Below, piece after piece: positions 25,551-52,438 of a DNA stretch of 64,000 nucleotides. The DNA comes from Microbacterium sp. Marseille-Q6648 (lineage in GTDB: Bacteria; Actinomycetota; Actinomycetes; Actinomycetales; Microbacteriaceae): positions 530,130-594,129 of the forward strand of contig NZ_CALPBZ010000002.1 in assembly GCF_943181415.1 (NCBI RefSeq). Reading direction: 5' to 3'. Below the pieces are notes generated by a model. It was not told where the DNA came from. It was given only the letters and a program-made list of their open reading frames with translations, and did not search any database. The first letter of the stretch is position 1. Every line of letters begins with the position of its first letter. The position numbers and the translations under genes are program-made.

Positions 25551-25771
25551 GGATCACAACTCCTGCACCTCTGCCGTCGGCTGAGGGGTGACCGGATCAC
25601 AACTCCTGCACCTCTGGTCGACGAACCGAGCCGCAGCCCCGGAAAACCGCGGAATCGCGGCACCCCAGGACCTCGAACCGCAGAAAGCTGCAGGAGTTGT
25701 GATCCTCAACGCCGGGTCAGCTGCAGGAGTTGTGATCCTCAACGCCGGGTCAGCTGCAGGAGTTGTGATCC
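25551..25771. repeat. Dispersed 17-mer repeat, five copies (family A, locus 1)
   Basis: GGATCACAACTCCTGCA occurs in forward orientation at 25551-25567 and 25594-25610, both followed by CCTCTG. It occurs in reverse (TGCAGGAGTTGTGATCC) at 25689-25705, 25722-25738 and 25755-25771. The three reverse copies form a 33-bp tandem repeat. The forward and reverse blocks are separated by about 78 nt, so long stems could form. No gene is visible in this gap, which separates a small plus-strand gene from a minus-strand glycosyltransferase (convergent). Exact copies occur again at 52276-52438. Confidence 0.95.
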
Positions 25772-25782
25772 TCCACGCCGGG

Positions 25783-27153
25783 TCAGAGCACGCGGCGGTA
25801 CACCTCGAGCATCGCCGCGGTCCGCGACGACTGCCGGAACCGCGTGCGCAGCGTCGGGTCGGGGGTCGGCGCGGTCCCCTCCGCCACGCGCGACGCCACG
25901 CACCGCAGCGCCGCCGCGAGCGCATCGACCGAGGCGTCTTCGACGCGCCACACCCCCGCGCCGAGCTCCTCGGCGATGTCGGGGTCCGAGACGACCGACG
26001 GGGTTCCCAGGGCGCCGGCCTCGAACACCGTCATCCCCTGCGTCTCGAAGCCGATCGAGGTCTGCACCAGCGCGTCGGCGGCGGCGATCCGCCGCAGCGT
26101 CTCGGGGTACGGGAGGCGCCCCGCGAACGTCACCGTGGCGGCCGCGCGGTGCCGGCCGAGCAGCCGTCGCGCCGCACCGAGCTGCGCACCGCCGCCGATG
26201 ACCTCGACGTCTGCCACCACGCCCGAGACAGCCAGCGCCTCGAGGAAGGGCAGCAGCCGCTTCTCGGGACTCATCCGTCCGCTCCAGACCAGGCGCGGCG
26301 GGCCGGGCGGTCGCACCTCGGGAGCCGAGGCGAGCGCCGCGTCGAGCAGGTCGTCGTCGATGCCGTTCCACACCACGTCGATCCGGGGCTCGGCCTCGGC
26401 AGCCCCTGCAGCAGAGCGGATGCCGCGACCGCCGCGACCGGGCACCACGCCGTGGTCCTCCAGGCGACGCGCGAAGTGGCTCGAGGGCGCGGTGACCGCA
26501 TCCGAGCGCGCGGCGAAGCCGCGGAGGAAGCCCCACCCGTCGCGCGGACTGCCGGCGCCCCGGCCGGCAACCGCGGCGTCAGCCCCGACACCCGCGGCCG
26601 AATCCCCACCGCGCCCGGCACCTGGAGCGCGGCCGCCGTCCACCGGTGCCCCGGCCCCGGCAACCACCCGGCCCGCCGCCAGCGCTCGGCGCTGCCACAG
26701 GTTCAGCGCGCGCAGCACCAGCCCCGGCAGAGGCGTCGTCGCCTCGATGCCCACATCGACGCGGTTGTGCATCGTGTGCACCACCGGCAGCCCGCGACGG
26801 GCGGCGAAGCGATGCCCGATGAATCCGCCCCAGAAGTCCGCCTGCACGTGCACGAGGTCGACCGGCGGTCGCGAGGCGAGAGCCTCGTCGACCCGGCGGT
26901 CGGCGGCGGCACCCGGCCATGTGAAGGAGTACTCCCGGTCGAAAGTGATGGGCACCGACGGCAGGTCCACGTACGCGGGTCCCGCGGCGGCGCGAGCGGG
27001 AACGGCCGCGCGTGCCCGCTGCCCGTGCAGTGCGGGCGCCACGATCGTGACGGTGTGCCCGGCGCGCTCGAGGTACCGGCGCTGCAGCCTCATCGACACC
27101 TGCGCCCCGCCCAGCGACTCCACGTGCTGGTCGGCGAACATCACGATGTGCAC
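25783..27153 (-). CDS. GT4-family glycosyltransferase with Gly/Ala-rich insert
   Basis: A 456-residue GT-B enzyme. The N-terminal Rossmann domain opens with MHIVMFADQHVESLGGAQ; the C-terminal domain has VWSGRMSPEKRLLPFLEAL and the E-x7-E-like nucleotide-sugar motif FETQGMTVFEAGALGTPSVV. Residues about 155-215 are a Gly/Ala/Pro/Arg-rich low-complexity insertion, probably a disordered loop. It likely transfers a sugar to a lipid, glycan or polysaccharide precursor at the inner membrane face. GTG 27153 starts 5 nt after the stop of the other GT4 gene, so the two form an operon. Confidence 0.87.
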   Translation of the reverse strand: MHIVMFADQHVESLGGAQVSMRLQRRYLERAGHTVTIVAPALHGQRARAAVPARAAAGPAYVDLPSVPITFDREYSFTWPGAAADRRVDEALASRPPVDLVHVQADFWGGFIGHRFAARRGLPVVHTMHNRVDVGIEATTPLPGLVLRALNLWQRRALAAGRVVAGAGAPVDGGRAPGAGRGGDSAAGVGADAAVAGRGAGSPRDGWGFLRGFAARSDAVTAPSSHFARRLEDHGVVPGRGGRGIRSAAGAAEAEPRIDVVWNGIDDDLLDAALASAPEVRPPGPPRLVWSGRMSPEKRLLPFLEALAVSGVVADVEVIGGGAQLGAARRLLGRHRAAATVTFAGRLPYPETLRRIAAADALVQTSIGFETQGMTVFEAGALGTPSVVSDPDIAEELGAGVWRVEDASVDALAAALRCVASRVAEGTAPTPDPTLRTRFRQSSRTAAMLEVYRRVL

Positions 27154-27158
27154 GCGGG

Positions 27159-28433
27159 CTACTCCGGAACCGGCTCGCCGCGGTAGAGCGCCTCGAAGGT
27201 CTCGAGGGTCCGGGTCATGTCGTGCACCTTCACGCCCTCCAGGGAGGCCTCCTGCATCCGACGCCGCTCGTCGGGCGTCTGGCGCAGCACGCGGTTGATC
27301 TTCGCGGCGAGGTCGTCCGCGTCACCGGGCCGGAACAGGTAGCCGTTCTCGCCATCGTGGACGAGGTGCGGCAGCGCGACGGCGTCCGCGGCGACGATCG
27401 GCAGGCCCGAGGCCATCGCCTCCATGGTCGCGATGGACTGCAGTTCGGCGATCGAGGCGATCACGAACACACTCGCGCGGGTGAGGAAGCCCCTCAGCTC
27501 CTCGTCGGTGGTGTGGCCGTGGAAGCGCACCCGGTCGGCGAGTCCGAGCTGACCGGCCAGCTCCTCGAGGTTGCGTCGCTGGTCGCCGTTGCCGACGACA
27601 TCGAACTGCACGTCGAGCGCCGGGTCGAGCTTGGTGAGTGCCCGCAGGATGACATCGATCTGCTTCTCGGTGGTCAGCCGCCCCACGAACACGAGGCGAT
27701 GGGCGTCGCGCGGGGTGAGATCGGGGGTGTAGTTCTTGGCCTCGAGTCCGCAGCTGACGGGCATCACACCGCGGATGTCGATCGTGTTCTCGAGGAAGTC
27801 GGCGGCCTTGCGCGTCGGGGTCGTGACGGCGCGCGTGAGGGCGAAGGTGCGCTTGGCGTCGTCCCACGCCAGCTTGACGACGAACTTGTCGAGCACCGGC
27901 GGGAGCGTGGTGAAGTCGACGACGTTCTCGGCCATCACGTGGTTGGTGGCCACGATCGGGATTCCGCGCTTGTGCGCCTCGCGAGAGAGTCCCCGGCCGA
28001 TCACGATGTGCGACTGGATGTGCACCACGTCGGGGCGCACGCGGTCGAGGACTCTGCGCGCATAGTGCTTCGACATCCACGGCAGCACGAAGGTGAGCCA
28101 GTCGTGCGGCAGCCAGCGCCACGACGGCAGCCGGTGCATCGTCATGGACTCGCCCTCGATCACCTCGGTGAACGTGCCGTGCTCGCGATGGGTGCGACTG
28201 GGTGCCATGACGTGCACCTCGTGCCCGCGCGCGACGAGGCCCGCGGCCAGCCGCTCCGCGAAGCGGGCGGCGCCGTTCACATGAGGCAGGAACGTGTCGG
28301 CGCCGATCAGCACCGTGAGGGGTCGCTGGCTCACGGCGTCGGCGGCGGATTCGTCGGGCGTCGCGGGTTCAGTCACGGGATGCGGTGGACCTGTCTGTGC
28401 GGCGAAGTGCGCGGTTCGATGGTCGTCGGGCAC
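27159..28433 (-). CDS. GT4-family glycosyltransferase (PimB/mannosyltransferase-like)
   Basis: A 424-residue GT-B enzyme. Key parts are VLIGADTFLPHVNGAARFAERLAAGL at the N-terminal domain start, HIQSHIVIGRG, the sugar-nucleotide region FVGRLTTEKQIDVILRAL, and EAMASGLPIVAADAVALPHLV. It resembles actinobacterial mannosyltransferases acting on phosphatidylinositol or diacylglycerol lipids, but the acceptor is not certain. The GTG at 28433 is chosen because TACAGT (28443-28448) could be its -10 box; the GTG at about 28376 is the alternative. First gene of a two-gene operon, divergent from the 28528 operon. Confidence 0.88.
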   Translation of the reverse strand: MPDDHRTAHFAAQTGPPHPVTEPATPDESAADAVSQRPLTVLIGADTFLPHVNGAARFAERLAAGLVARGHEVHVMAPSRTHREHGTFTEVIEGESMTMHRLPSWRWLPHDWLTFVLPWMSKHYARRVLDRVRPDVVHIQSHIVIGRGLSREAHKRGIPIVATNHVMAENVVDFTTLPPVLDKFVVKLAWDDAKRTFALTRAVTTPTRKAADFLENTIDIRGVMPVSCGLEAKNYTPDLTPRDAHRLVFVGRLTTEKQIDVILRALTKLDPALDVQFDVVGNGDQRRNLEELAGQLGLADRVRFHGHTTDEELRGFLTRASVFVIASIAELQSIATMEAMASGLPIVAADAVALPHLVHDGENGYLFRPGDADDLAAKINRVLRQTPDERRRMQEASLEGVKVHDMTRTLETFEALYRGEPVPE

Positions 28434-28527
28434 GCGGCATCCACTGTACCCGAGCGCCGCCGCGCGACCGGGAGCCCTCGCCGCACCCTCAGAGGCGCCG
28501 TGTCGCCTGCCCACGTACCCTGGAGTC

Positions 28528-29130
28528 ATGCCGAGACTTCAGGCCGATGCCGCCCCCGATCGCTGGGTGCCGGTGACCGATTCGCTGGGCTGGCGCGGGC
28601 GTCGGCACCGCAAGGCCGCGATCCGGATGCTGCTCACGCAGGCCGGCCGCGCTGTCGGCCCGACCGGTCAGACTCCCCGGCCCGGCAGCGGCGTCGCCGC
28701 GTGGGCGATGAGCCAGGCCGCACCCCTGCTCATGAAGCGGGCCGCCGGACGCGTACTCGCGTGGGTGTGGAAGGCGGACCCGGACCTGCTCGTGGTGATG
28801 GCGCAGGTGCAGCGCGCCACGAACGAGCTGCGCGCGGCGCGCGCCATGATGCCGATGGAGTACGACGACACCGAGTCGTTCCGCAACCCCCACCTGGGCG
28901 AGGGCGAGAAGCTCGCCATGCCGCTCCCCCGCGACGAGCGCACACCGCCGTTCGCCTCGTACACGTGGGACACCGGAACGCACTTCGTCACCGTCACGGC
29001 GGTGTGCTCCGACCGTGAGCGCTTCGGCACCGTCATCGGCGCCGTGGACGACCTGGCCCGCAGCCTGCGGGTGGTCGACGACCTCCCCGTGGGCGAGACG
29101 CCCGGGGTGCTGCGGATCGACCCGGCATGA
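28528..29130 (+). CDS. Conserved-looking hypothetical protein, first gene of a three-gene operon
   Basis: A 200-residue protein I do not recognise. A basic N-terminal half (GWRGRRHRKAAIRMLLTQAGRA) is followed by a helical stretch (LLVVMAQVQRATNELRAARAMMP) and a C-terminal alpha/beta part (ASYTWDTGTHFVTVTAV, then GTVIGAVDDLARSLRVVDD). No clear membrane span. A TACCCT -10 box at 28516-28521 ends 6 nt before the ATG. Its stop overlaps the next ATG (ATGA). Confidence 0.75.
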   Translation: MPRLQADAAPDRWVPVTDSLGWRGRRHRKAAIRMLLTQAGRAVGPTGQTPRPGSGVAAWAMSQAAPLLMKRAAGRVLAWVWKADPDLLVVMAQVQRATNELRAARAMMPMEYDDTESFRNPHLGEGEKLAMPLPRDERTPPFASYTWDTGTHFVTVTAVCSDRERFGTVIGAVDDLARSLRVVDDLPVGETPGVLRIDPA

Positions 29131-29663
29131 GCGAGACGTCTCCACGCCACGCCGACCGGCGCACGCACGGGCTGCATCGGGTGCTCGTGCGCACGGGATT
29201 CACCACCGAGCAGGCCGTCTACGGTGTGCTGCTCGTGGCCGGCCTCATCGTCGTCGCGAGCCTGCACTCCACGTCGTCGCTGCAGGTGCTCGTGACCGTG
29301 GTGTTCACCGTGGTCGTGTTCTGGCTCGCGCACGTCTACGCGGGGACCGTCGCCCATCACGGTCTCGACGAGGGCCGCGACACCGGGTTGCGGGCGTCCT
29401 TCCGCCAGGCGCTGCGCGCGTCGTGGGGCCTGCTGCTGTCGGCGCTCATCCCCTGCGCGATCCTGCTCCTGGGGACGACCCAGGTCGTGCCCGATCCCGT
29501 GGCGGAATGGGCGGCGCTGTGGTCGTGCGTGATCCTCCTCGGAATCCTCGGCTACGTCGCGTTCGCGCGGCGCGGCGCCGCGATGCCGGTCCGCCTCCTG
29601 GGGGCGGTCAGCACGGCCGGCTTCGGCGCGTTGATGGCGCTGCTGAAAGCGATCGTGCACTGA
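29127..29663 (+). CDS. Integral membrane protein of unknown function
   Basis: 178 residues with four clear hydrophobic helices (about residues 30-48, 52-72, 97-117, 125-145, with a fifth weaker one near the C-terminus). A His-rich connection (AHVYAGTVAHHGLDEGRD) lies after the second helix. I do not recognise the family. It is coupled to both neighbours: ATGA overlap upstream, TGATG overlap downstream. Confidence 0.75.
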   Translation: MSETSPRHADRRTHGLHRVLVRTGFTTEQAVYGVLLVAGLIVVASLHSTSSLQVLVTVVFTVVVFWLAHVYAGTVAHHGLDEGRDTGLRASFRQALRASWGLLLSALIPCAILLLGTTQVVPDPVAEWAALWSCVILLGILGYVAFARRGAAMPVRLLGAVSTAGFGALMALLKAIVH

Positions 29664-30337
29664 TGCCGTCACCCCGTTCCCCGCAGGCGCAGCGTCTGCG
29701 GCGCAAGCGTCTGCTGTCGTGGGTGCCGACGACCATCGTGGCCCTGCTGTGCATCGGCGTCGTGATCGCGGCGATCGCCGTGGGCGATTCGTGGTGGAGC
29801 GAGCCCGAGCCCGAGGCAGCCGTGGATCAGCAGGCCGCCGACGGTGCGTCGCTGTTCACGCAGGCGGGTGTCGACTTCCTCACCCGTCAGGGCGAGCTGC
29901 GCGTCAAGCTGCGCGACGACGCCCTGTCGGCCGGCGAGCTCGGCCTCGAGCCCGACGGCGAGCGCACGATCGAGCCGCTCGTGCCGGTACGCGCGATCGT
30001 CCTCGGCGAAGAGGGCACCTTCAGCATCGAGCTCGTCGACGCGTTCACCCTCATCACCGAGGACGACGAGCTGGTGGCCCTCCGGACCGGGCCCGCCGGT
30101 CCCCGGACGTGGGGTACCGCGATGGGTTCGGTCCGCTCCGTCGCGCCGTCGTGGGGCTGGACCACCGAGCATCTCGAGCAGCTCGACGAAGATCTCACGG
30201 CGGCCTCGCGCGGCAGCGACGCCTACAGCGCCGAGCTTCCGCTGGTCACGACCAACGGCGCCCGGGTGGGCGCGCGCATCGACGTCGACACGCGCGCCTC
30301 CTCGGTCACGGTGACCTACACGTTCCGCACTCTCTGA
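29663..30337 (+). CDS. Membrane-anchored protein of unknown function
   Basis: 224 residues: a basic cytoplasmic N-terminus (SPQAQRLRRKRLLSW), one transmembrane helix (about 20-40), then an acidic extracytoplasmic domain (DSWWSEPEPEAAVDQQAADG) that ends in a beta-rich segment (RIDVDTRASSVTVTYTFRTL). No cysteine and no lipobox. The ATG overlaps the previous stop by one base (TGATG). The three genes 28528-30337 probably act together in the envelope, but nothing reveals the role. Confidence 0.75.
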   Translation: MPSPRSPQAQRLRRKRLLSWVPTTIVALLCIGVVIAAIAVGDSWWSEPEPEAAVDQQAADGASLFTQAGVDFLTRQGELRVKLRDDALSAGELGLEPDGERTIEPLVPVRAIVLGEEGTFSIELVDAFTLITEDDELVALRTGPAGPRTWGTAMGSVRSVAPSWGWTTEHLEQLDEDLTAASRGSDAYSAELPLVTTNGARVGARIDVDTRASSVTVTYTFRTL

Positions 30338-30361
30338 GCGCGGGCACGGCGCCGGTACGGC

Positions 30362-31090
30362 TCACGGAGCCGGATCGGCCGGGCCCTCGCCCAGACGCGC
30401 GGTGAGCTCGGCGACCTGCCGCGACAGGTCTCGCACCTGACCGCGCGTCGCCGCCTGGGTCTCATCTCCGGAGGCCTTGACGGCGACCTTCTCGATGACC
30501 CACGACGACAGCGTGGCCGTGACGACGCCGAGCACGGCGACGCCTCCGCACATGAGAAGCACCGCCACGATGCGCCCGCCCGCGGTCACCGGGTAGAAGT
30601 CGCCGTAGCCGACGGTCGTGATCGTGACGAACGCCCACCACACGGCATCCCCGAAATCGACGATGTTCGCCCCGTCCGCGCGGCGCTCGGCGTCGAGCAC
30701 CGCCAGAGCAGCGATCCAGATGAGCACCAGCGCGGCGCCGGCACCGTAGATGGTCAGGCTGCTGCGCAGCCGTGCACCCACCGTCCGCTGCAGCGCGCCG
30801 ATCACCGTCAGCGCCTTCAGCAGCCGCAGGGGTCGCATCGCCGGGATCACGACGACCGCCAGGTCGAACAGGTGCCTCCGGAACCAGACACCTCGGGGTC
30901 GGGCCAGCGAGAGGCGCACGACGTAGTCGACGGCGAAGAAGACCCACGTGGCCACCATCACCGCGCGCACCCAGACGAACGGGGACCCATCGAGGTCGGC
31001 GATCACCTGCCAGGAGTACGCCACGACGAACAGCACCGACGCGATGATCAGCGGCCACGACGTGACCTTCTCCCACCGCTCGAGCGTCAT
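30362..31090 (-). CDS. Voltage-gated-type K+ channel (6-TM ion channel)
   Basis: A 242-residue channel subunit. Five hydrophobic segments precede the pore; the S4-like segment RPLRLLKALTVIGALQR has spaced Arg/Lys. The pore loop WWAFVTITTVGYGDFYPV carries the TVGYGD selectivity filter. A C-terminal coiled segment (RGQVRDLSRQVAELTARLGE) is probably the tetramerisation region. The start MTLERW at 31090 has no good ribosome-binding site. A TACCCT -10 box at 31132-31137 is followed 6 nt later by an out-of-frame GTG whose short ORF ends exactly on this start (see leader entry), so translation may be by coupling. Confidence 0.9.
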   Translation of the reverse strand: MTLERWEKVTSWPLIIASVLFVVAYSWQVIADLDGSPFVWVRAVMVATWVFFAVDYVVRLSLARPRGVWFRRHLFDLAVVVIPAMRPLRLLKALTVIGALQRTVGARLRSSLTIYGAGAALVLIWIAALAVLDAERRADGANIVDFGDAVWWAFVTITTVGYGDFYPVTAGGRIVAVLLMCGGVAVLGVVTATLSSWVIEKVAVKASGDETQAATRGQVRDLSRQVAELTARLGEGPADPAP

Positions 31091-31125
31091 GATCGAAGGC
31101 CCGGCGAGGACGATGTGGTGCGCAC
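31087..31125 (-). CDS. Putative 12-codon leaderless leader peptide of the K+ channel gene
   Basis: From the TACCCT -10 box (31132-31137) the first in-position start is GTG at 31125, 6 nt downstream, exactly the spacing used by other leaderless genes here. It would encode VRTTSSSPGLRS and stop at TGA 31087-31089, which overlaps the channel ATG as ATGA. No in-frame start for the channel exists nearer the predicted transcript start. The composition, with consecutive Thr and Ser, gives no clear attenuation signal. Prediction only. Confidence 0.35.
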   Translation of the reverse strand: MRTTSSSPGLRS

Positions 31126-31172
31126 GCTCAGAGGGTAGCGCTCCACCCCGCCCGCAGTGCCACACTGAGCGC

Positions 31173-32594
31173 ATGAACGCTCCCTCGCTCCGGCCGCTCG
31201 CGGCGGCATGGGAGGCCCCGGTCGGCATCCGGCAGCAGCGCGACGAGGGGCGCGCGGTGCGCCGCGACATCCCCCGCGAATCCCTTTCGGCCATGCCGGA
31301 AGGACCGCGCGACCCGATGGGGATCCTCGACGCGCAGGACGCGGGGCGCGTTCCCGAGCTGGTGCCGATCCGCACCGCGCGCATGGCCGAGAGCCCCTTC
31401 GCGTTCTACCGCGGCACGGCCGCGCTCATGGCCGCCGATCTGGCGCGCACCGCGCACACCGGCATCCTCGTCGGATCGTGCGGCGACGCCCACGTGTCGA
31501 ACTTCGGGCTGTACGCCTCGCCGCAGCGGACGCTCGTGTTCGACCTCAACGACTTCGACGAAGCGGCGTGGGCGCCGTGGGAGTGGGACCTCAAGCGCCT
31601 CGTGACCAGCGTCGTCGTCGCCGGGCAGTCGACGTCGCGCGACGAGAGGGTGATCCGGGACGCCGCCCTCGACGCCGTGCGCACCTACGCGCGGTCGCTC
31701 GGGGCGGGCGTACGCCGGAGCCCGCTCGACCGGTACTACGACCGCTTCGACGCGGATGCCGCCGGCCGGGCGGTGGATCGCCGCACGCGGGCTGCGCTGA
31801 GGGAGGCGGTCCGCGCGGCCGACAAGCGGACGGCGGCGCGGGCGGTGCGCCGTCTGACGGAGTGCGACGACACGGGGCGGCGCGTGTTCGTCGAGCAGCC
31901 GCCGACGATGACGCATGTCGACCCGGCGATCGAACGGCGCGTGCTCGAGGTGCTCGAGGTGTACCTGCAGTCCGCGAACATCGACATCCGCGCGCTGCTG
32001 CAGAAGTACCAGCTCGCCGACATCGTGCGTCGGGTGGTGGGCGTCGGCAGCGTCGGCACGCGCTGCTACCTCATCGCGATGCAGGACGGCGACGACAACG
32101 CCCTGCTCCTGCAGGCGAAGGAGGCGGGCCCCAGTGTGCTCATCCAGTACGGCGAGGTCGAGCAGCCCGAGTCGGTCACCCGGTACATCGAGCGCTTCGG
32201 CGACGGCGGGCGCGTGGTGGCGATGCAGCGCATCCTGCAGGCCGTGTCGGATCCCTTCCTCGGCCACCTGACCGGCACGCCCGCCGAGGGCGGGCCGGAC
32301 CGCTCCTTCTATGTGCGGCAGTTCCACGACAAGAAGGGCGGATTCGAGGTCGACGCGCTCGAGGACGGGCCGTTCCACTGGTACGCCGACGCGTGCGCGG
32401 CCACCCTGGCCCGCGCGCACGGGCAGTCCCCGCACGCGGGGCGCGTGTCGGGCTACCTCGGCGGCGGCCGGGTCGCCGACGAGGCGCTGGTCGAGTGGGC
32501 CTTCGCGTACGCGGCACAGTCCCGCGAGGACTGGCTGCGCTTCCGCGCCCACCGCGGCGTCGACGGCGACCCCGGCGGCGGATCCCACGACTGA
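31173..32594 (+). CDS. DUF2252 protein (kinase-like fold, function unknown)
   Basis: A 473-residue DUF2252 protein. The motifs GSCGDAHVSNFGLY and LVFDLNDFDEAAWAPWEWDLKRL resemble the Brenner (H-D-x-N) and metal-binding motifs of aminoglycoside phosphotransferase/kinase-like folds, so phosphotransfer is plausible. A late motif RQFHDKKGGFEVDAL is conserved in the family. The ATG follows CACACT (31161-31166) by 6 nt; the same atypical -10 hexamer occurs before the MFS exporter at 15546. Divergent from the K+ channel. Confidence 0.88.
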   Translation: MNAPSLRPLAAAWEAPVGIRQQRDEGRAVRRDIPRESLSAMPEGPRDPMGILDAQDAGRVPELVPIRTARMAESPFAFYRGTAALMAADLARTAHTGILVGSCGDAHVSNFGLYASPQRTLVFDLNDFDEAAWAPWEWDLKRLVTSVVVAGQSTSRDERVIRDAALDAVRTYARSLGAGVRRSPLDRYYDRFDADAAGRAVDRRTRAALREAVRAADKRTAARAVRRLTECDDTGRRVFVEQPPTMTHVDPAIERRVLEVLEVYLQSANIDIRALLQKYQLADIVRRVVGVGSVGTRCYLIAMQDGDDNALLLQAKEAGPSVLIQYGEVEQPESVTRYIERFGDGGRVVAMQRILQAVSDPFLGHLTGTPAEGGPDRSFYVRQFHDKKGGFEVDALEDGPFHWYADACAATLARAHGQSPHAGRVSGYLGGGRVADEALVEWAFAYAAQSREDWLRFRAHRGVDGDPGGGSHD

Positions 32595-32619
32595 CGGATG
32601 CCGGTGCTCGCCGCTCTGG

Positions 32620-33102: not shown

Positions 33103-33125
33103 GTCTGCTCACCTGCCTCGTTCGT

Positions 33126-34115: not shown

Positions 34116-34121
34116 CTCTGC

Positions 34122-34790: not shown

Positions 34791-34792
34791 GG

Positions 34793-43034: not shown

Positions 43035-43088
43035 CAGCACGTGACACACGGGTCGCACGGCCGGGACCGTGCGGCAGAATGGGCCGGG

Positions 43089-43820: not shown

Positions 43821-43946
43821 CGCCCTGTTTCGGCCGTTAACGCCTCTTGACGCCTGACGGCCCCCACTCAGAAACGGTTGCCTACTCTCGTGGAGTGGAC
43901 TCGACGGAGTCCGCGCCGGGCATGCCCGGAGACGACGGAGGCCACC

Positions 43947-45683
43947 GTGACCATCAGCGACACATCGACCGGCTCCCCCGCGCCCCGCGCGGAGGGTGCG
44001 CGCGCTCGTCCACCTCGCCCCTCGTCCAAGCCGAACGGCCAGTGGAAGATCGACGGCACGACGCCGCTGAACGGCAACGAGGAGTGGAAGCAGGTCGACA
44101 ACGGCCTGAGCGTGCGCGAGCGCATCGAGAACATCTACTCCAAGGGCGGGTTCGCCTCCATCGATCCCACCGACCTGCACGGGCGCTTCCGCGTCTGGGG
44201 TCTCTACACGCAGCGCAAGCCCGGGATCGACGGCGGCCGGACCGCCACACTCGAACCGCACGAGCTCGAAGACGAGTACTTCATGATGCGGGTGCGCATC
44301 GACGGAGGACAGCTGACCACCGAGCAGCTGCGCGTCATCGCCGGCATCTCGTCGGAGTTCGGCCGCGACGCCGCCGACATCACCGACCGCCAGAACATCC
44401 AGCTGCACTGGATCCGCGTCGAGGACGTCCCCGAGATCTGGCGACGACTCGAGGCTGTGGGCCTCGGCACCACCGAGGCGTGCGGCGATGTCCCCCGCGT
44501 GATCCTCGGCTCCCCCGTCGCCGGCATCTCGGCCGACGAACTGATCGATCCGACCCCGCAGATCAACGAGATCACCTCGCGGTTCCTGGGCGACGCGTCG
44601 CTGGCGAACCTCCCCCGCAAGTTCAAGTCGGCCATCACCGGGCACCCGAGCCAGGACGTCGTCCACGAGATCAACGACGTGGCCTTCGTCGCCGTCGAGC
44701 ACCCCGAGCTCGGCATCGGCTACGACCTGTGGGTCGGCGGCGGCCTCTCGGCCTCGCCGCGGCTCGGCGAGCGCCTGGGTGCCTTCGTCGCCCCCGAGCA
44801 GGTGGCCGAGGCGTGGCACGGGGTGGCGCAGATCTTCCGCGACTACGGCTACCGGCGGCTGCGCGACAAGGCGCGTCTGAAGTTCCTGCTCGCCGAGTGG
44901 GGCCCCGAGAAGTTCCGGCAGGTGCTGCAGGACGAGTACCTCGGCTACGCGCCCCCCGACGGCCCGCCCGCCCCGAAGCCCCCGACCCCGGGCGACCACG
45001 TCGGCGTGCATCGCCAGAAGGACGGCCGCTTCTACGTCGGTGCCACGCCGATCGTCGGCCGCGTCTCGGGTCCGATCCTCGCCCACCTCGCAGACCTCAT
45101 CGAGGCGCACGGCTCGACCCGCCTCCGCACGACGCCCCACCAGAAGATCGTCATCCTCGACATCCCCGAGGACCGCGTCGAATCCCTCATCGCCGGACTC
45201 GACGGGCTCGGGCTGTCGGCTCGGCCGAGCCTCATCCGCCGCGGCACCATCGCGTGCACGGGCATCGAGTTCTGCAAGCTCGCGATCGTCGAGACCAAGG
45301 CCTACGCCACCGCCGCCGTCCTCGACCTCGAGAAGCGCCTCGAGCAGTTCGAGCTGCCGCATCCGATCTCGCTGCATGTGAACGGCTGCCCGAACTCGTG
45401 CGCCCGCATCCAGACCGCCGACATCGGCCTCAAGGGACAGCTCGTCACGATCGACGGCGAGCAGGTCCCCGGCTACCAGGTGCACCTCGGCGGGGGACTG
45501 GCATCGCAGGACCGCGACGAGGCGGGCCTGGGCCGTACCGTCCGCGGCCTCAAGGTCGCCGCCGACGGCATCGCCGACTACGTCGACCGCGTCGTGCGCC
45601 GCTTCCTCGACGAGCGCGACTCCGGCATCGACGAGACGTTCGCGCAGTGGGCGCACCGTGCCGACGAGGAGGCCCTGGTATGA
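43947..45683 (+). CDS. sir: Ferredoxin-dependent sulfite reductase (SirA/NirA type)
   Basis: A 578-residue siroheme/[4Fe-4S] enzyme that reduces sulfite to sulfide with six electrons. Cluster ligands are TIACTGIEFCKLA and HVNGCPNSCARIQ (CxxxxxC and CxxxC). Tyr87 (WGLYTQRK) and Cys179 (TTEACGD) are 92 residues apart, the same distance as Tyr69 and Cys161 of M. tuberculosis NirA, which form a covalent Tyr-Cys bond by the siroheme. That supports sulfite rather than nitrite as substrate, together with the operon. GTG 43947 has a GGAGG site; a TACTCT box lies at 43883-43888. First gene of a run of eight overlapping genes. Confidence 0.92.
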   Translation: MTISDTSTGSPAPRAEGARARPPRPSSKPNGQWKIDGTTPLNGNEEWKQVDNGLSVRERIENIYSKGGFASIDPTDLHGRFRVWGLYTQRKPGIDGGRTATLEPHELEDEYFMMRVRIDGGQLTTEQLRVIAGISSEFGRDAADITDRQNIQLHWIRVEDVPEIWRRLEAVGLGTTEACGDVPRVILGSPVAGISADELIDPTPQINEITSRFLGDASLANLPRKFKSAITGHPSQDVVHEINDVAFVAVEHPELGIGYDLWVGGGLSASPRLGERLGAFVAPEQVAEAWHGVAQIFRDYGYRRLRDKARLKFLLAEWGPEKFRQVLQDEYLGYAPPDGPPAPKPPTPGDHVGVHRQKDGRFYVGATPIVGRVSGPILAHLADLIEAHGSTRLRTTPHQKIVILDIPEDRVESLIAGLDGLGLSARPSLIRRGTIACTGIEFCKLAIVETKAYATAAVLDLEKRLEQFELPHPISLHVNGCPNSCARIQTADIGLKGQLVTIDGEQVPGYQVHLGGGLASQDRDEAGLGRTVRGLKVAADGIADYVDRVVRRFLDERDSGIDETFAQWAHRADEEALV

Positions 45684-46423
45684 CCGTGTCGCTGGCCCCG
45701 CGCACCGCTGTCAAGCGCACGCGAGACGAGCTGAAGGCGCTCGCCGAGCAGGGCGAGCGCGAGCTGCACAGCCTCGCCGCCGACGAGGCGTCCCCCGCCG
45801 AAGTCGTCGCATGGGTCGCCCGCAACTTCGGAGTGGATGCCCTCGCCGTCGCCTGCTCGATGGCCGACGCCGCGCTTCCCCACCTCGTCGCCGAGCAGCT
45901 GCCCGGTGTGGACGTGCTGTTCCTCGACACCGGGTACCACTTCGCAGAGACGCGTTTCACGCGGGACGAGGTCGGCCGGGCGCTGGACGTGCGCATCGTG
46001 GACGTGCTGCCCGAGCAGACCGTCGCGGAGCAGGACGCCGAGTTCGGCGCGAAGCTGTACGAGCGCGACCCGGCCCTGTGCTGCGCGCGCCGCAAGGTCG
46101 CTCCGCTGCAGGACGCGCTCGGCGGCTACGAGGTGTGGTTCACCGGCGTCCGCCGCGAAGAGGCTCCGACGCGGGCGAACACCCCTCTGGTGACGTGGGA
46201 CGAGCGCAACGGGCTCGTCAAGGTCAACCCCGTCGCCGCATGGACGTTCGACGACCTGCTGGACTATGCCGGCGCCCACCAGGTGCCGGTCAACCTCCTG
46301 GTCTCCAACGGCTACCCCTCGATCGGCTGCGAGCCGTGCACGAAGCCGGTCGCACCCGGAGAAGACCCCCGAGCCGGCCGCTGGGCCGGTCTCTCGAAGA
46401 CGGAATGCGGGCTCCACGTATGA
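45680..46423 (+). CDS. cysH: Adenylylsulfate (APS) reductase
   Basis: A 247-residue enzyme reducing APS to sulfite with thioredoxin. The two Cys pairs that hold a [4Fe-4S] cluster are present (LCCARRK and GCEPCTKP), plus the catalytic C-terminal Cys (KTECGLH). The presence of the cluster pairs marks it as APS rather than PAPS reductase, consistent with the absence of cysC (APS kinase) in the window. ATGA overlap with sir and with cysD. Confidence 0.93.
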   Translation: MTVSLAPRTAVKRTRDELKALAEQGERELHSLAADEASPAEVVAWVARNFGVDALAVACSMADAALPHLVAEQLPGVDVLFLDTGYHFAETRFTRDEVGRALDVRIVDVLPEQTVAEQDAEFGAKLYERDPALCCARRKVAPLQDALGGYEVWFTGVRREEAPTRANTPLVTWDERNGLVKVNPVAAWTFDDLLDYAGAHQVPVNLLVSNGYPSIGCEPCTKPVAPGEDPRAGRWAGLSKTECGLHV

Positions 46424-47376
46424 CGATCTCAGAAACCACGGCCCCCCGGACGCTGAGCGAGGAGCGCAGCGACGAGACGAAGCGCCGCCTCTCGACCCTC
46501 GACATCCTCGAGGCGGAGGCAATCCACGTCATCCGCGAAGTCGTCGCCGAGTTCGAACGTCCCGTGCTGCTGTTCTCGGGCGGCAAGGACTCCGTCGTGG
46601 TGCTGCACCTGGCCACGAAGGCCTTCGCGCCCGGGCGGGTGCCGTTCCCGGTGCTGCACGTGGACACCGGGCACAACTTCCCCGAGGTGATCCGCTTCCG
46701 CGACGAGACGGTCGCCCGTCTCGGCATCCGTCTCGAAGTGGCGCGGGTGCAGGACTACATCGACGACGGCCGCCTGCAGGAGCGCGCCGACGGCACCCGC
46801 AACCCGCTGCAGACGCTGCCCCTGCTCGACGCGATCGCCACGGGACGCCACGACGCCGTCTTCGGCGGAGCCCGCCGCGACGAGGACAAGGCCCGCGCCA
46901 AGGAGCGCATCATCTCGCTGCGCGACGAGTTCGGCCAGTGGGACCCGCGCAACCAGCGCCCCGAACTGTGGAGCCTGTACAACGGCCGCCACACTCCCGG
47001 GCAGCACGTGCGGGCGTTCCCGATCTCCAACTGGACCGAACTGGATGTCTGGCGCTACATCGAGCGCGAGAGCATCGCCCTGCCCCCGCTGTACTTCGCG
47101 CACGAGCGCGAGGTGTATGCGCGCGACGGCATGTGGCGCCCCGTCGGGGAGTTCTCGCCGCCGCGCGAAGACGAGTCCGTCGAGGTCCGCACCGTGCGCT
47201 ACCGCACCGTCGGCGACATGAGCTGCACCGGCGCCGTCGACTCGGACGCCGCCGACATCCGCGCCATCGTCGCCGAGGTCGCGCGTTCCACCCTCACCGA
47301 GCGCGGTGCCACGCGAGCCGACGACCGCCTGTCGGAAGCCGCCATGGAAGACCGCAAGAAGGACGGATACTTCTGA
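46420..47376 (+). CDS. cysD: Sulfate adenylyltransferase subunit 2
   Basis: A 318-residue PP-loop ATPase-like subunit (LLFSGGKDSVVVLHLA) with the family motifs HVDTGHNFPEV, FGGARRDEDKARAKER and SWTELDVW-like ISNWTELDVWRYI. With CysN it makes APS from sulfate and ATP. Overlaps cysH upstream (ATGA) and cysN downstream (TGATG). Confidence 0.95.
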   Translation: MTISETTAPRTLSEERSDETKRRLSTLDILEAEAIHVIREVVAEFERPVLLFSGGKDSVVVLHLATKAFAPGRVPFPVLHVDTGHNFPEVIRFRDETVARLGIRLEVARVQDYIDDGRLQERADGTRNPLQTLPLLDAIATGRHDAVFGGARRDEDKARAKERIISLRDEFGQWDPRNQRPELWSLYNGRHTPGQHVRAFPISNWTELDVWRYIERESIALPPLYFAHEREVYARDGMWRPVGEFSPPREDESVEVRTVRYRTVGDMSCTGAVDSDAADIRAIVAEVARSTLTERGATRADDRLSEAAMEDRKKDGYF

Positions 47377-48734
47377 TGCCCGCGACCCTCTCCACCGGGA
47401 CGCTGTTCCGGTTCGCCACGGCCGGCTCGGTCGACGACGGCAAGTCCACGCTGGTCGGGCGGCTGCTGCACGACTCCAAGGCGATCCTCGCCGACCAGCT
47501 CGAGCAGGTCGCACGCACCTCCGCCGAGCGCGGGTTCGCGCACGGCGAGTTCGACTTCGCCCTGCTGACCGACGGCCTTCGCGCCGAGCGCGAGCAGGGC
47601 ATCACGATCGACGTCGCGTACCGCTACTTCGCCACCGCCTCGAGATCGTTCATCCTCGCCGACTGCCCCGGCCACGTGCAGTACACCCGCAACATGGTCA
47701 CCGGCGCGACGACCGCCGACGCGGTCGTCGTCCTCGTGGATGCGCGGAAGGGTGTCGTCGAGCAGACGGTGCGCCACCTCGCGGTGGTCGCGCTCCTGCG
47801 GGTGCCCCACGTGATCGTCGCGGTCAACAAGATCGACCTCACCGGCTTCGACGCCGACACCTTCGCCACGGTGTCGTCCGACGCCCACCGGGTGGCCGGC
47901 GAACTGGGCATCGAAGACCTGCACGTGCTGCCGGTCTCGGCGCTCGAGGGCGACAACATCGTCGAGCGGTCGCCGCGGACCCCCTGGTACGCGGGTCCGG
48001 CACTCCTCGAGCTGCTCGAGACGCTCCCCGGCGCGGACGAGCTCGACCAGGAGCACGAGCCGCTGCGCCTGCCGGTGCAGCTGGTGCTGCGCCCCCAGGG
48101 CGGACTGTCGCCCGAGCTCGCCGCCGACCCCGTCGCCGCCGAGGGCCTGCGCGACTACCGCGCCGTCGCCGGACGCATCGCGTCGGGGACCGTGCGCGTC
48201 GGCGACCGTGTCGAGGTCTTCCCCTCGCGGGTGGCCACCACCGTGACCGGCATCCGGATCGCGGGCGAAGAAGCCGACGAGGCGGTCGCGCCGCAGTCGG
48301 TCTCGCTGGAGTTGGCCGATGATGTGGATGCCGCGCGCGGCGCCCTCGTCGTGGCGGCCGGTACGCTGCCGGACGGACGACGCGACATCGACGCCGAACT
48401 GTTCCAGCTCGACCGGCGCACGCTCGCCCCGGGAGCCCGCGTGCTCGTCAAGCACGGCACGACGACCGTACAGGCGCTCGTCGCCGACGTCTCGTCGCGC
48501 TACGACCTCGACGCGCTGACCCACGAGCCCGCCCAAGCGCTGGCGACGAACGACATCGGCCGGGTGCGACTGCGCCTGGCCGCCGACCTGCCGGTCGAGC
48601 CGTACGCCGACAACCGGCACGGCGGATCGTTCCTCGTCATCCACCCGACCGACGGCGCGACCCTCGCGGCCGGCATCGTGCGCGACAGGGTCGCCGAGGC
48701 GGGCCTCTCGGGCGGCACGGAGTGGGCGATATGA
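47376..48734 (+). CDS. cysN: Sulfate adenylyltransferase subunit 1 (GTPase)
   Basis: A 452-residue EF-Tu-like GTPase subunit that drives APS formation. Motifs: G1 AGSVDDGKSTLVGRLL, G2 EREQGITIDVAYRYF, G3 ADCPGHVQYTRNM, G4 VNKID. At this length there is no fused CysC kinase domain, again pointing to the APS-reductase branch. Confidence 0.95.
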   Translation: MPATLSTGTLFRFATAGSVDDGKSTLVGRLLHDSKAILADQLEQVARTSAERGFAHGEFDFALLTDGLRAEREQGITIDVAYRYFATASRSFILADCPGHVQYTRNMVTGATTADAVVVLVDARKGVVEQTVRHLAVVALLRVPHVIVAVNKIDLTGFDADTFATVSSDAHRVAGELGIEDLHVLPVSALEGDNIVERSPRTPWYAGPALLELLETLPGADELDQEHEPLRLPVQLVLRPQGGLSPELAADPVAAEGLRDYRAVAGRIASGTVRVGDRVEVFPSRVATTVTGIRIAGEEADEAVAPQSVSLELADDVDAARGALVVAAGTLPDGRRDIDAELFQLDRRTLAPGARVLVKHGTTTVQALVADVSSRYDLDALTHEPAQALATNDIGRVRLRLAADLPVEPYADNRHGGSFLVIHPTDGATLAAGIVRDRVAEAGLSGGTEWAI

Positions 48735-49549
48735 CCGCCGCGACCGGCAAGGTGTGGCTCGTCGGAGCGGGGCCGGGCGACCCCGGCCTGCTCACCGTCC
48801 GCGGACTCCGCGCGCTCGAGCGGGCCGACGTCATCGTCGCCGACCGTCTCGGCGCCCGTGCCGTGCTCGACGGCCTCGCCGCCGAGGGTGTCATCCTCAC
48901 CGCCGAGGTCGTCGACGTCGGCAAGCTCCCCGGCCACCACGCCGTACCCCAGGACAACATCAACGCTCTCCTGGCGCAGCTGGCCGGCGAGGGTCGCAGC
49001 GTCGTGCGCCTCAAGGGCGGCGACCCGTACATCTTCGGCCGCGGCCTCGAAGAACTGGCATTCTGCCAGGCGGCGGGGGTCGAGGTGGAGGTCGTCGCGG
49101 GCATCACCAGCGCCATCTCGGTGCCGGCGGTGGCCGGCATCCCCCTCACGCATCGTGGTGTCGCGACCGCCTTCACCGTCGCGACGGGCCACGACCAGAT
49201 CCGCGAGATCGGCGGCGGCGCCGATCACACCGTCGTCCTGCTCATGGGCGTCGGGACCCTCGCGCACTCCGCCCTGACCCTCGCGCGCGGCGAGCGCGGG
49301 CTCGACTGCCCCGTCGCCGTCGTCGAGGACGGCTTCGGCGCCGGACAGCGCGTGACCGTCGGCACCCTCGCGACCATCGCCGCGCAGGCCGCCGAGCGCG
49401 GCGTGCGTTCGCCCGCGGTCGTCGTCGTCGGCGATGTCGTGCGGCTGAGCCCGTACGCCCCGGCCGAGCTGGCCACCCTCGATCTCTCTTCGTTCGATCC
49501 GCTCGCCGCACCCGGCGGGCGCACCCCTCGAAAGGCCCCTTCGCTGTGA
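48731..49549 (+). CDS. cobA: Uroporphyrinogen-III C-methyltransferase (SUMT)
   Basis: 272 residues with the SUMT fold (KVWLVGAGPGDPGLLTVRGLRAL; RLKGGDPYIFGRGLEEL; GVEVEVVAGITSAISVPAVAGIPLTHR). It makes precorrin-2, the first step to siroheme needed by the sulfite reductase. No fused CysG dehydrogenase/chelatase domain; the CbiX protein upstream could do the chelation, but a precorrin-2 dehydrogenase is not in this window. ATGA overlap with cysN and GTGA overlap with the next gene. Confidence 0.93.
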   Translation: MTAATGKVWLVGAGPGDPGLLTVRGLRALERADVIVADRLGARAVLDGLAAEGVILTAEVVDVGKLPGHHAVPQDNINALLAQLAGEGRSVVRLKGGDPYIFGRGLEELAFCQAAGVEVEVVAGITSAISVPAVAGIPLTHRGVATAFTVATGHDQIREIGGGADHTVVLLMGVGTLAHSALTLARGERGLDCPVAVVEDGFGAGQRVTVGTLATIAAQAAERGVRSPAVVVVGDVVRLSPYAPAELATLDLSSFDPLAAPGGRTPRKAPSL

Positions 49550-50958
49550 CCCACACCCCTTCGTCCCTTGCGAATCTGCGCGTCGCGATCATCGGCGCGG
49601 GCCCCGCCGGCATCTACGCGGGCAACATCCTCTCGGGCTCCGTCGCCGAGGCCGGCGGCTCGGTCGCGATCGACCTCTTCGAGTCGCTCCCGGCGCCCTA
49701 CGGCCTGATCCGCTACGGCGTCGCCCCCGACCACCCGCGCATCAAGGGCATCGTCACCTCGCTGCACGAGATGCTGGATGCCGGTTCGATCCGCTTCATC
49801 GGCAACGTCGAGGTGGGCCGGGACATCGCCCTCGACGAGCTGCGCGAACGGTACGACGCGGTCATCATCGCCACCGGCGCGATCCGCGACGCCGTCCTGG
49901 ACATCCCCGGCATCGACCTGCCCGGGTCGTACGGCGCTGCGGACTTCGTCGCCTGGTTCGACGGCCACCCGGACGTGCCGCGCGAGTGGCCGCTGGATGC
50001 ACCCGAGGTCGCCGTCATCGGCAACGGCAACGTCGCCCTCGACGTCGCCCGCATGCTGGCGAAGCACCCCGAAGACCTGCGCTCGACCGAGATCGCGGAC
50101 AACGTGCTCGGGGGTCTCGAGGCCTCGAGCGTCACCGACGTGCACGTCTTCGGCCGCCGCGGTCCCGCCGACATCAAGTTCACGCCCATCGAGCTGCGCG
50201 AGCTCGGCGAAGTGCCGAACGTCGACATCATCGTCCACGACGAGGACTTCGGCGACGCCGACCCCGCCGACGCCAAGAACAACCAGCTGAAGGTGATGCT
50301 GCGCGTCATGAACAGCTGGCGTACGCGCGAGCGCACCGGCGCGAGCCGCCGCCTGCACCTGCACTTCTACCACTCGCCTGTCGAGGTCATCGGCGCCGAC
50401 CGCGTCGAGGGTGTGCGCTTCGAGCGCACCGCTCCCACCGGCGACGGCAGCGTCATCGGCACCGGCGAGTACCGCGAGATCGCCGTGCAGCAGGTCTACC
50501 GCGCCGTGGGCTACTTCGGCACGCCCGTGCTCGGAGCGCCGTTCGACGAGGTGCGCGGCGTGGTCCCGAACGTCGAAGGCCGGGTGACCGACACCGCCTC
50601 TGCGGCGACGGCCGAGGACGGCGGCACCGCACTGCAGGGCCTGTACGCCACCGGCTGGATCAAGCGCGGGCCCGTGGGCCTCATCGGCCACACCAAGTCG
50701 GACGCGATGGAGACCATCGCCCACCTCGTGTCCGACGCGCAGTCGGGGCTGCTCGCGGCTCCCGCGGTCGCGGATGACGTGCTCGACCTTCTCGGCGAGC
50801 GCGACGTCGCCTACACGACGTGGGACGGCTGGCGCGCCCTCGACGCCCACGAACGCGAGCTCGGCGCGACCCATCGCCACACGCGCGAGCGCGTCAAGGT
50901 CGTACCGCGCGACGAGCAGGTGGCGATCTCCCGTTCGGGAGCACTGATCGAGTCATGA
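49546..50958 (+). CDS. fprA: Ferredoxin-NADP+ reductase (FprA type)
   Basis: A 470-residue adrenodoxin-reductase-like flavoprotein. FAD motif [40 protein letters not shown] motif [15 protein letters not shown], and [21 protein letters not shown] near the end. It would move electrons from NADPH to the ferredoxin encoded next, which then feeds sulfite reductase. GTG 49546 overlaps the SUMT stop. Confidence 0.93.
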
Positions 50959-51284
50959 CCTACGTCATCGCCCTTCCCTGCGTCGACGTCAAGGACCGCG
51001 CCTGCATCGACGAGTGCCCCGTGGACTGCATCTACGAGGGCGAACGCTCGCTGTACATTCACCCCGACGAGTGCGTGGACTGCGGCGCCTGCGAGCCGGT
51101 CTGCCCGGTCGAGGCGATCTACTACGAAGACGACCTCCCCGATGAGTGGCAGGACTACTACAAGGCCAATGTCGAGTTCTTCGACGACATCGGCTCGCCC
51201 GGGGGCGCCGCGAAGGTCGGCGTGATCGCCAAGGACCACCCCGTCATCGCAGAGCTGCCTCCCCAGGCGGAAGGCCATGACTGA
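50955..51284 (+). CDS. fdxA: 7Fe ferredoxin
   Basis: 109 residues. Cluster ligands are seen in [14 protein letters not shown] and [22 protein letters not shown], the 3Fe-4S/4Fe-4S pattern of actinobacterial FdxA, with the usual C-terminal extension. Probable direct electron donor of the sulfite reductase in this operon. ATGA overlap with fprA; 8-nt overlap with the next gene. Confidence 0.94.
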
Positions 51285-52242
51285 CCCGCACCCCGCCGCG
51301 ACCAGCACCGAGGTAGACGCGCTCATCATCGGCGGCGGCCCCGCGGGGCTCTCGGCGGCGCTGAACCTCGGTCGCGCCCGCGCGTCGGTCGTCGTGGTGG
51401 ACGCCGGCCGTCCGCGCAACGCCGCGACCCTGCGGTCGCACGGTTTCCTGACCCGCGACGGCGTCTCGCCGCTGGAGCTGCGCAAGCTCGCCCGCGCCGA
51501 GCTGACTGCGTACCCGAACGTGCACGTGATCGAGCGCGCCGTCGTGTCGGGCCTGCGCCCGCACCCCGGCACCGACGGGCTGCGCTTCGTCGCCGGCATC
51601 AACGCCCGCACGCCGCGCACGCCCCCGGCCGTAGCCGCCCGATCGGTCCTCGTCGCCACCGGCCTGCGAGAGACGCTGCCGACGATTCCGAACCTGCGGT
51701 CGTACTACGGCATGTCGATCTTCAGCTGCGCGGCGTGCGACGCGTGGGAGCTGCAGGACCGTCCGCTCGCGCTCATCGGCGAGACCCCCGACCTGGCCGC
51801 CCGCGCCCGCCTGATCGCCCGGTGGACCGACCGCCTGACGGTGTTCACGAACGGCGCCGACGTGGTGTCGACGGTCGAAGAGGCCGAGCTCGCGGCATCC
51901 GGGATCACCGTCGAGCGATCCGGGATCGCGGATCTCGAAGGGGAGCGCGGCGCGGTCACCGGCGTACGGCTGGGCAACGGGCGTGTGGTGGCGGTCGAGG
52001 GCGGGTTCGTGCGGCCGGTGTGGCATCCGGCGCTCGACTTCCTCGGCGCGGTCGAGGCCGAGCGCGACCCCGACGGTCATCTGGTCGTCGACGGATCCGG
52101 CCGCACCACGATGCCCGGTCTCTACGCCGCCGGCGACGCCGCCGCGCCCGGCCCGCAGCAGCTCATCGTCGCCGCCGGTCAGGGCGCGCGAGCCGCAGCG
52201 GTGCTGGTGCACGACCTGGTCGGGGTGCAGACCGCGCACTGA
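51277..52242 (+). CDS. Thioredoxin-reductase-like FAD/NAD(P) oxidoreductase
   Basis: A 321-residue flavoprotein. FAD motif [20 protein letters not shown], the redox disulfide CAAC ([10 protein letters not shown]), and the C-terminal FAD motif [17 protein letters not shown]. In true TrxB the NADPH motif is GxGxxA; here the corresponding region [17 protein letters not shown] is degenerate, so its electron donor may differ. It ends the sulfate operon and could serve APS reductase turnover or another thiol pathway. No thioredoxin gene is adjacent. Confidence 0.85.
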
Positions 52243-52275
52243 GCGGCGTCCGGCCGATGGGTGCCAGCCGGCCGA

Positions 52276-52438
52276 GGATCACAACTCCTGCACCTCGAGT
52301 GCGGCCCGGCGGGCGCCGGCCGCCGAGGATCACAACTCCTGCACCTTGAGTGCCGCCCGGCTGGCAGGTCCCCGATTCCCCGCGGATTCCCGCCGTGCAC
52401 GGCGCGCGGCGAGCCGCGACATGCAGGAGTTGTGATCC
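52276..52438. repeat. Dispersed 17-mer repeat, three copies (family A, locus 2)
   Basis: GGATCACAACTCCTGCA occurs forward at 52276-52292 and 52327-52343 (51-bp spacing, each inside a CCGAGGATCAC context) and in reverse at 52422-52438. All three are identical to the five copies at 25551-25771. The layout is again forward-forward then reverse, with about 80 nt between blocks. The whole gap 52243-52516 shows no gene apart from this. Confidence 0.95.

What the first reader, a model, noticed from the sequence alone, without database searches (positions are those of the whole stretch)
25551..52438. An exact 17-mer repeated eight times at two intergenic loci 27 kb apart
GGATCACAACTCCTGCA occurs at 25551, 25594 (forward), 25689, 25722, 25755 (reverse), and at 52276, 52327 (forward), 52422 (reverse). 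Eight perfect copies, all intergenic, cannot be chance in 64 kb. Both loci have the same architecture: two forward copies, a gap of about 80 nt, then reverse copies (three in a 33-bp tandem, or one). Spacer sequences differ, so the 17-mer itself is what is conserved. It is not a single hairpin; forward and reverse blocks could pair over a distance or serve as protein sites. I know no described element with this sequence.
Basis: seen in the sequence. Interest (0 to 1): 0.75.

Follow-up and report, generated by a model that had tools for sequence, protein, structure and literature searches.

The report
Nuclease with matching scattered genome sites
The repeated 17-letter word is one half of a paired, regularly spaced DNA site that is scattered between the genes of this bacterium and its relatives, and each lineage's version matches the sites flanking a gene for a DNA-cutting-type protein, so these bacteria seem to keep a cutter together with dozens of its own target sites.

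Summary
In detail: eight exact 17-mers where 0.13 near-matches are expected. The genome (a Microbacterium) holds 23 exact and 43 near copies, mostly as inverted pairs. The unit is a three-block site: half-site, centre palindrome (about CCSCGNAATTNCGSGG), inverted half-site. Interiors differ, but spans cluster near 63, 74, 85, 98 and 108 bp and arms are about 31, 43 or 54 bp, i.e. whole helical turns. The likely partner is encoded outside the window: an AbiEi-type fold fused to a Vsr/EDxHD-type nuclease domain, its gene flanked by such elements. Homologues elsewhere are flanked on both sides by their own half-sites (20 of 28 loci picked by protein alone; other genes 1 of 306), and words read from those flanks proved dispersed in most of those genomes tested, up to 81 copies. 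Half-site type follows the protein tree, with some rows left unlabelled. It works like REPIN/RAYT but shares no component with it. Binding and cutting are inferred. Ten searches of an open-access library (lists capped) showed no earlier description.

The parts
25551..25567 (+). extra half-site GGATCACAACTCCTGCA, 43 bp outside the next one
25594..25610 (+). left half-site of element A (core edge 25601)
25636..25661 (.). centre of element A: two overlapping candidates CCCCGGAAAACCGCGG and CCGCGGAATCGCGG; either gives arms of about 44 and 54 bp
   Evidence: first candidate, by matrix; second seen by eye
25689..25705 (-). right half-site of element A (core edge 25698); span 98 bp
25722..25738 (-). 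extra half-site within the 33-bp tandem array
25755..25771 (-). extra half-site within the 33-bp tandem array
25686..25786 (.). 33-bp tandem array, 3.1 copies
52276..52292 (+). extra half-site within the 51-bp tandem array
52259..52365 (.). 51-bp tandem array, 2.1 copies
52327..52343 (+). left half-site of element B (core edge 52334)
52379..52396 (.). centre motif of element B CCCGCGGATTCCCGCCGT, arms 54 and 44 bp
52422..52438 (-). right half-site of element B; span 98 bp

Best explanation
The 17-mers are half-sites of a dispersed, three-block DNA site recognised by a chromosomally encoded, domesticated nuclease: a protein with an AbiEi antitoxin fold (N-terminal winged helix) fused to a Vsr/EDxHD-type nuclease domain, encoded in this genome at contig 2, 18170-19033, and flanked on both sides by the same element. 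Shown by computation: the three-block anatomy, the helical-turn quantisation, the flanking of the gene, the lineage-specific match between gene flanks and genome-wide sites, and the clustering of half-site types on the protein tree. Inferred: the winged helices bind the two half-sites on one face of the DNA, the DNA is bent or looped, and the nuclease domains meet at the centre palindrome, where they nick or cut under conditions not known. Breaks at the elements and their repair would explain the local tandem duplications, the change of arm length at shared places, the in-place inversion of the nuclease cassette and the gain of an element inside truA. The host benefit is not known; long retention at fixed places with intact catalytic residues suggests there is one.
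Against: No binding, cutting or expression data. Homologues at E<=1e-20 occur in 256 of 295 congeners, so bare presence does not discriminate; site-positive G003 has none at that cut-off. 8 of 28 protein-picked loci lack a shared flanking word by the automatic test. In G162 and G169 the exact 9-mer pairs lie only at the nuclease flanks; in G314 the related 16-mer occurs once, beside the nuclease. L285 and L290, left unlabelled in the tree, have AACTCAGGC pairs on one side only and lie outside the AACTCAGGC clade, so with them that type would not be one clade. This genome's second paralogue (L369) has no shared flanking pair. The 63-64 bp classes show no centre motif, scores in the 73 class are often near the shuffled level, and the matrix was built from the 84, 86 and 88 classes, which are therefore not independent. 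Order-wide 13 of 30 loci pass, two already known, three by a single GC-rich 8-mer or a GC-rich pair of them (control in that setting 1 of 306). Pfam AbiEi_4 and MTES_1575 hits are below the curated cut-offs. An arm of 3-5 turns is long for a 288-aa monomer.
Confidence: 0.72

Rival explanations
1. A member of the REP/REPIN family mobilised by a RAYT (Y1 tyrosine transposase) through single-stranded hairpins.
For: Dispersed intergenic inverted pairs, diverse spacers, gene flanked by its own repeats, vertical inheritance: all as described for REPIN/RAYT (PMC3116915, PMC8049555, PMC2817692, passages). The pair can fold as a hairpin.
Against: No Y1 transposase family match in this genome; 4 of 98 genomes have one. 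Half-site has no GTAG tag and no stable stem of its own. Arms do not covary within G321 and G012. Span falls in several discrete classes per genome. The flanked gene is a different enzyme.
Confidence: 0.05
2. A transcription-factor regulon: the AbiEi-like protein is a repressor or activator with 20-40 operators and the nuclease domain is incidental.
For: AbiEi proteins autoregulate by binding inverted repeats. One site lies in the LacI-galT promoter region (names by eye) and is shared by two species.
Against: Elements avoid divergent regions and favour convergent ones (25 convergent, 15 divergent, 55 codirectional of 95; length-weighted expectation 19%, 36%, 44%; p 0.0002) and sit nearer the upstream stop in 49 of 78 codirectional gaps (p 0.03) (home-made gene calls). 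Nuclease residues are invariant.
Confidence: 0.15
3. A chromosome-structure site: the protein bridges or wraps DNA at intergenic elements (nucleoid organiser), with the nuclease domain used rarely or as a structural dimer.
For: Helical phasing, dozens of dispersed sites, no obvious promoter link.
Against: Invariant catalytic residues; tandem duplication, cassette inversion and gain inside truA hint at DNA breakage.
Confidence: 0.2
4. RNA-level element (terminator, stabilising hairpin or riboregulator).
For: Bias to 3' sides of genes; long-stem potential.
Against: No Rfam match but a tRNA in the window; no terminator-like site at either place; arm covariation absent within G321 and G012, weak in the own genome; helical-turn spacing has no obvious reason in RNA.
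Confidence: 0.05
5. Plain non-autonomous transposon (MITE) with 17-bp terminal repeats.
For: Inverted termini; element inside truA absent from G012 and G208.
Against: Interiors of dispersed copies in one genome look unrelated apart from the centre and local doublets; places shared between species keep ends while interior, and in two cases length, change.
Confidence: 0.08

Closest known systems
REP/REPIN elements with RAYT (REP-associated tyrosine transposase)
   Same: Dispersed intergenic inverted pairs with diverse spacers; an enzyme gene flanked by the same repeats; single-copy, vertically inherited enzyme (papers seen in passages)
   Different: Enzyme is AbiEi fold plus Vsr/EDxHD nuclease, not Y1/HuH; half-site has no own hairpin or GTAG tag; conserved centre palindrome; spans fixed in whole helical turns
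AbiEi / Rv2827c antitoxin operators
   Same: Same fold in residues 5-182; paired inverted repeats; repeat gap differs by 10 bp between two systems (PMC7319586 passages)
   Different: Those are operators of a toxin operon with 23-bp repeats 3 or 13 bp apart; here dozens of dispersed sites with half-sites 40-90 bp apart and no toxin partner seen
EDxHD homing endonuclease I-Bth0305I and Vsr
   Different: Chromosomal, with one weak match in the phage collection; many resident target sites in the same genome; AbiEi-type DNA-binding half
MTES_1575 REase / DUF559 domain family
   Same: Nuclease domain belongs near this family; described as novel Vsr-type REase (PMC3710099 passages)
   Different: No dispersed cognate sites in the two passages I saw

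Membership tests
REP/REPIN-RAYT | Y1 (HuH) tyrosine transposase encoded in the genome | tested here: not met
   PF01797: no match in own genome; 4 of 98 genomes have one
REP/REPIN-RAYT | Each repeat holds an imperfect palindrome and a GTAG-type tag | tested here: not met
   17-mer folds at 0 kcal/mol; GGCGCAT variant -0.6, as good in 109 of 200 shuffles; no GTAG or CGTC in either, by eye
REP/REPIN-RAYT | Enzyme gene flanked by its cognate repeats | tested here: met
   but for a different enzyme: 30 of 42 loci
AbiEi-type antitoxins | AbiEi fold with N-terminal winged helix | tested here: met
AbiEi-type antitoxins | Operon with an AbiEii-type toxin | tested here: not met
   in the own genome both neighbouring genes lie on the other strand; they are an acetyltransferase and rplQ (by eye)
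Vsr/EDxHD nucleases | Fold and catalytic residues | tested here: met
Vsr/EDxHD nucleases | DNA cleavage activity | not testable with these tools
   needs purified protein
Homing endonuclease | Gene sits inside its own target and spreads to empty targets | tested here: inconclusive
   gene lies between two elements at a few fixed places; empty counterparts not examined

The most novel reading that the evidence does not exclude
A new class of genome-resident system in Actinobacteria: a domesticated AbiEi-EDxHD nuclease that recognises, and under some condition nicks or cuts, dozens of self-encoded three-block sites on its own chromosome, with protein and sites changing together by lineage. It would be an independent invention of the REPIN/RAYT arrangement with a restriction-type nuclease, acting on helically phased double-stranded DNA.
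Probability: 0.5. Interest if true: 0.93.

Novelty: categorically new. Interest (0 to 1): 0.85.

Why it matters
A nuclease that changes together with dozens of matching sites in its own chromosome has no described counterpart that I could find in the library searched. It gives a natural set of many protein-site pairs (seven half-site types on one protein tree) from which DNA recognition by AbiEi-type winged helices could be read; it makes the function of a common orphan family testable (homologues in 256 of 295 congeners); and it offers an independent comparison for the open question of why bacteria keep REPIN-like repeats. It also suggests that intergenic repeats in Microbacteriaceae are not neutral markers.

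Tried and rejected
RAYT as the partner: no PF01797 match in the own genome. Hairpin/RNA reading: arm covariation looks strong when all species are pooled (positions -7 to -1, z 3 to 11) but this can come from lineage-specific half-sites; within G321 and G012 it vanishes; in the own genome a weak rest remains (positions -5, -4, -1, z 2.7, 2.0, 1.8), where two half-site types mostly pair like with like. Rfam and terminator scans: nothing at the sites. Viral origin: 17 stretches in the viral contigs with scattered spans 63-121, which serves as a chance picture; nuclease in the phage collection 1 weak hit, in plasmids 3 distant Tsukamurella hits. NCBIfam: none; PADLOC: weak AbiEi. Eight pattern loci from unrelated phyla were dropped before the counts as chance hits. 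A search for TruA relatives in viral contigs gave none. The galT-side half of the promoter pair overlaps the galT start and lacks the lineage's outer seven bases, so it may be chance. My first control (13 of 329) still held nuclease genes; cleaned to 1 of 306 (the test there was slightly stricter: same word, same orientation). Literature: ten searches of an open-access library gave no report of such elements; two of them asked for known systems, and the lists of 46, 63, 94 and 98 showed only the first 10 to 15 papers; subscription papers and preprints were not searchable, so novelty is provisional.
Full report
OBSERVATION. The eight 17-mers are at the stated places, with no further copy in the window at up to 3 mismatches and 0.13 expected. 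The whole genome has 14 forward and 9 reverse exact copies and 43 copies at up to 3 mismatches; reading the pattern backwards gives 0 and 4. Among 98 genomes searched for the exact word, only the own one has it. The genus is Microbacterium: the relative G012, placed in the same genus, has a contig of the same length (904,425) as one of Microbacterium sp. Root180, and both hold the same element.

ANATOMY. Most copies form inverted pairs. Searching the inner ten bases as a pair (AACTCCTGCA..TGCAGGAGTT) found 15 of 295 congeners, reversed control 0; with a wider gap 13 pairs in the own genome, 28 in G321 and 18 in G012. After dropping eight loci of unrelated phyla and near-identical copies (over 72% alike at equal span), 166 pairs remain: spans 63-64 (12), 72-76 (30), 83-88 (113), 98-99 (6), 108 (1) and four others. 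Outer bases are lineage-specific: GGATCAC here, GGCGCAT in G321 and G012, gNGCAT in many Cryobacterium loci. The own genome also holds some GGCGCAT sites and one mixed element (L221).

CENTRE AND PHASING. Aligning by span shows a palindrome at the exact centre of the 84-86 classes, about CCSCGNAATTNCGSGG. A matrix built from the 84, 86 and 88 classes was slid over all elements. In classes not used for the matrix it fell at 42/43 in 34 of 36 (span 85), 44/54 in 5 of 5 (98), 45/54 (99), 54/54 (108) and about 31/42 in 9 of 11 (73), though scores in the 73 class are often near the shuffled level; classes 63 and 64 show no centre. So the arms are about 31, 42-44 or 54 bp: three, four or five turns. 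A second half-site family has 108 pairs, of which 82 were listed; these lie at 62-65 (60), 73-74 (6) or 85-87 (16) (periodicity score 0.95 against at most 0.41 in 2000 random sets; local near-copies not removed). In a third, G043, 81 copies give 34 pairs with start-to-start distances of 57-58 (25) or 69-70 (9). By contrast 17 pattern hits in viral contigs have scattered spans.

GENERALITY, BY PREDICTION. I took homologues from other Microbacterium genomes by protein similarity alone and looked at their flanks. Many carry inverted pairs with other words: AACTCAGGC, AACTCCGGAG, AACTCCTCA, CGTACCGATTGCAGGATC, CGTACCGTTCTCAGGA, GGTTCGCAATTCAGTC. The same 8-mer inverted pair stands on both sides in 30 of 42 loci with flanks; of the 30 protein-picked loci 28 have both flanks and 20 of these pass (my count from its lines; eight of the 30 are represented by another fetch of the same gene). 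The control gave 13 of 329 genes, but nuclease genes had not been removed; without them it is 1 of 306. I then searched whole genomes for such words. CGTACCGWTYKCAGGA, written from the flanks in G048, G250 and G184: 20 of 295 genomes, with 53 copies in G184, 13 in G250, 11 in G048 and 6 in G037, whose flank word fits it; control one hit; but only one copy, beside the nuclease, in G314, whose flank word is similar. AACTCAGGC pairs: 20 of 295, with 22 in G278, 19 in G293, 17 in G269, control 0; but only the flanking pairs in G169 and G162. In the wider order 56 of 149 genomes have a homologue at E<=1e-25; 13 of 30 loci pass the flank test, two of them already known and three by GC-rich 8-mers only (control in that setting 1 of 306). 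Two new words were followed in six genomes at one mismatch: G060, another family, has 18 copies of TTCGATGTAGAAAT, and G043 has 81 copies of ACGACGCCAATTCT; the other genomes have 0 or 1; the reversed control is 0 in G060 and G043 and at most 5 elsewhere. Half-site types of 33 labelled rows need 8 changes on the protein tree (least possible 6; shuffled mean 17.1; 0 of 200 as low), with the six labelled AACTCAGGC rows one supported clade. Eleven rows were not labelled; two of them, L285 and L290, have an AACTCAGGC pair on one side and lie elsewhere on the tree.

EVOLUTION. The gene sits at a few fixed places: after rpoA-rplQ (own, G321, G012, G212, G208), between mutM/acetyltransferase and trpS, between mnhFG and a hydrolase, and beside glpK in Cryobacterium (neighbour names recognised by eye from their sequences). 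In the own genome the gene is turned around relative to both neighbours as compared with G212: the cassette between the two elements is inverted in place. Of 28 G321 elements, 11 have both flanks matched to a G012 element; there the outer seven bases are kept in 41 of 44 arms while the next 53 bases on either side are 62-94% identical, and two places changed span (86 to 108, 74 to 86). Extra half-sites in the window lie in 33-bp and 51-bp tandem arrays, except the one at 25551. An element lies in frame inside the own truA: part of own residues 77-151 is absent from TruA of G012 and G208, while G212 has an unrelated insert there; truA of G321 was not in the stretch fetched. So elements seem to be gained by a lineage, though loss elsewhere is not excluded.

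POSITION. By a home-made gene caller, 4 of the 155 elements that could be placed lie inside genes; 11 more were at locus edges. In the named-genome loci 25 are convergent, 15 divergent, 55 codirectional of 95, against length-weighted expectations of 19, 36 and 44% (p 0.0002), and 49 of 78 codirectional ones are nearer the upstream stop (p 0.03). This is not the pattern of promoter operators, though one site lies in the LacI-galT promoter region.

HOW IT MAY WORK. AbiEi and Rv2827c bind pairs of 23-bp inverted repeats, AbiEi cooperatively and with DNA bending, and their repeat gaps differ by 10 bp (PMC7319586, passages). I-Bth0305I dimerises on a target of nearly 60 bp (PMC3943268, passages). 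Combining both, I propose binding of two protomers to the half-sites on one face, DNA bending, and nuclease domains meeting at the centre. Binding and cutting are inferences. A resident nuclease with dozens of chromosomal targets must be held back; how is open.

COMPARISON AND VERDICT. The arrangement works like REPIN/RAYT (PMC3116915, PMC8049555, PMC2817692, passages) but fails its defining features: no Y1 enzyme in this genome, no palindrome in the half-site. It is not filed as a member. MTES_1575 REase is named in PMC3710099 without dispersed sites in the two passages I saw. I rate the association of nuclease and sites as very likely, the cutting step as about even.

Noticed in passing
L214:7919-8929 (- strand), own genome contig 2: truA carries a whole element in frame within a loop; G012 and G208 TruA lack it, G212 has an unrelated Pro/Ala-rich insert.
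   Followed up: yes
window 54164-54400: 50-bp tandem array, 4.7 copies, 94% matches, GC-rich.
   Followed up: no
window 59709-59934: 105-bp repeat, 2.2 copies, holding GTGCGTGAGAATCCCGCACG, which by eye resembles the centre palindrome of the elements; could be a site of another nuclease of this family.
   Followed up: no
window 63681-64000: 51- and 127-bp GC-rich tandem repeats running to the window end.
   Followed up: no
L369 (own genome contig 3, 286399-287181): Second paralogue of the AbiEi-nuclease with no shared flanking inverted pair.
   Followed up: partly
G043 contig 3, 705864-706697: Nuclease homologue flanked by elements has one TGA inside its frame, yet that genome has 81 half-sites and a second homologue without stops at 927049-927879.
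   Followed up: no
L011, own genome contig 2 262924-263012: Half-site upstream of galT beside a LacI-type gene (by eye), conserved with a promoter-like stretch in G321.
   Followed up: partly
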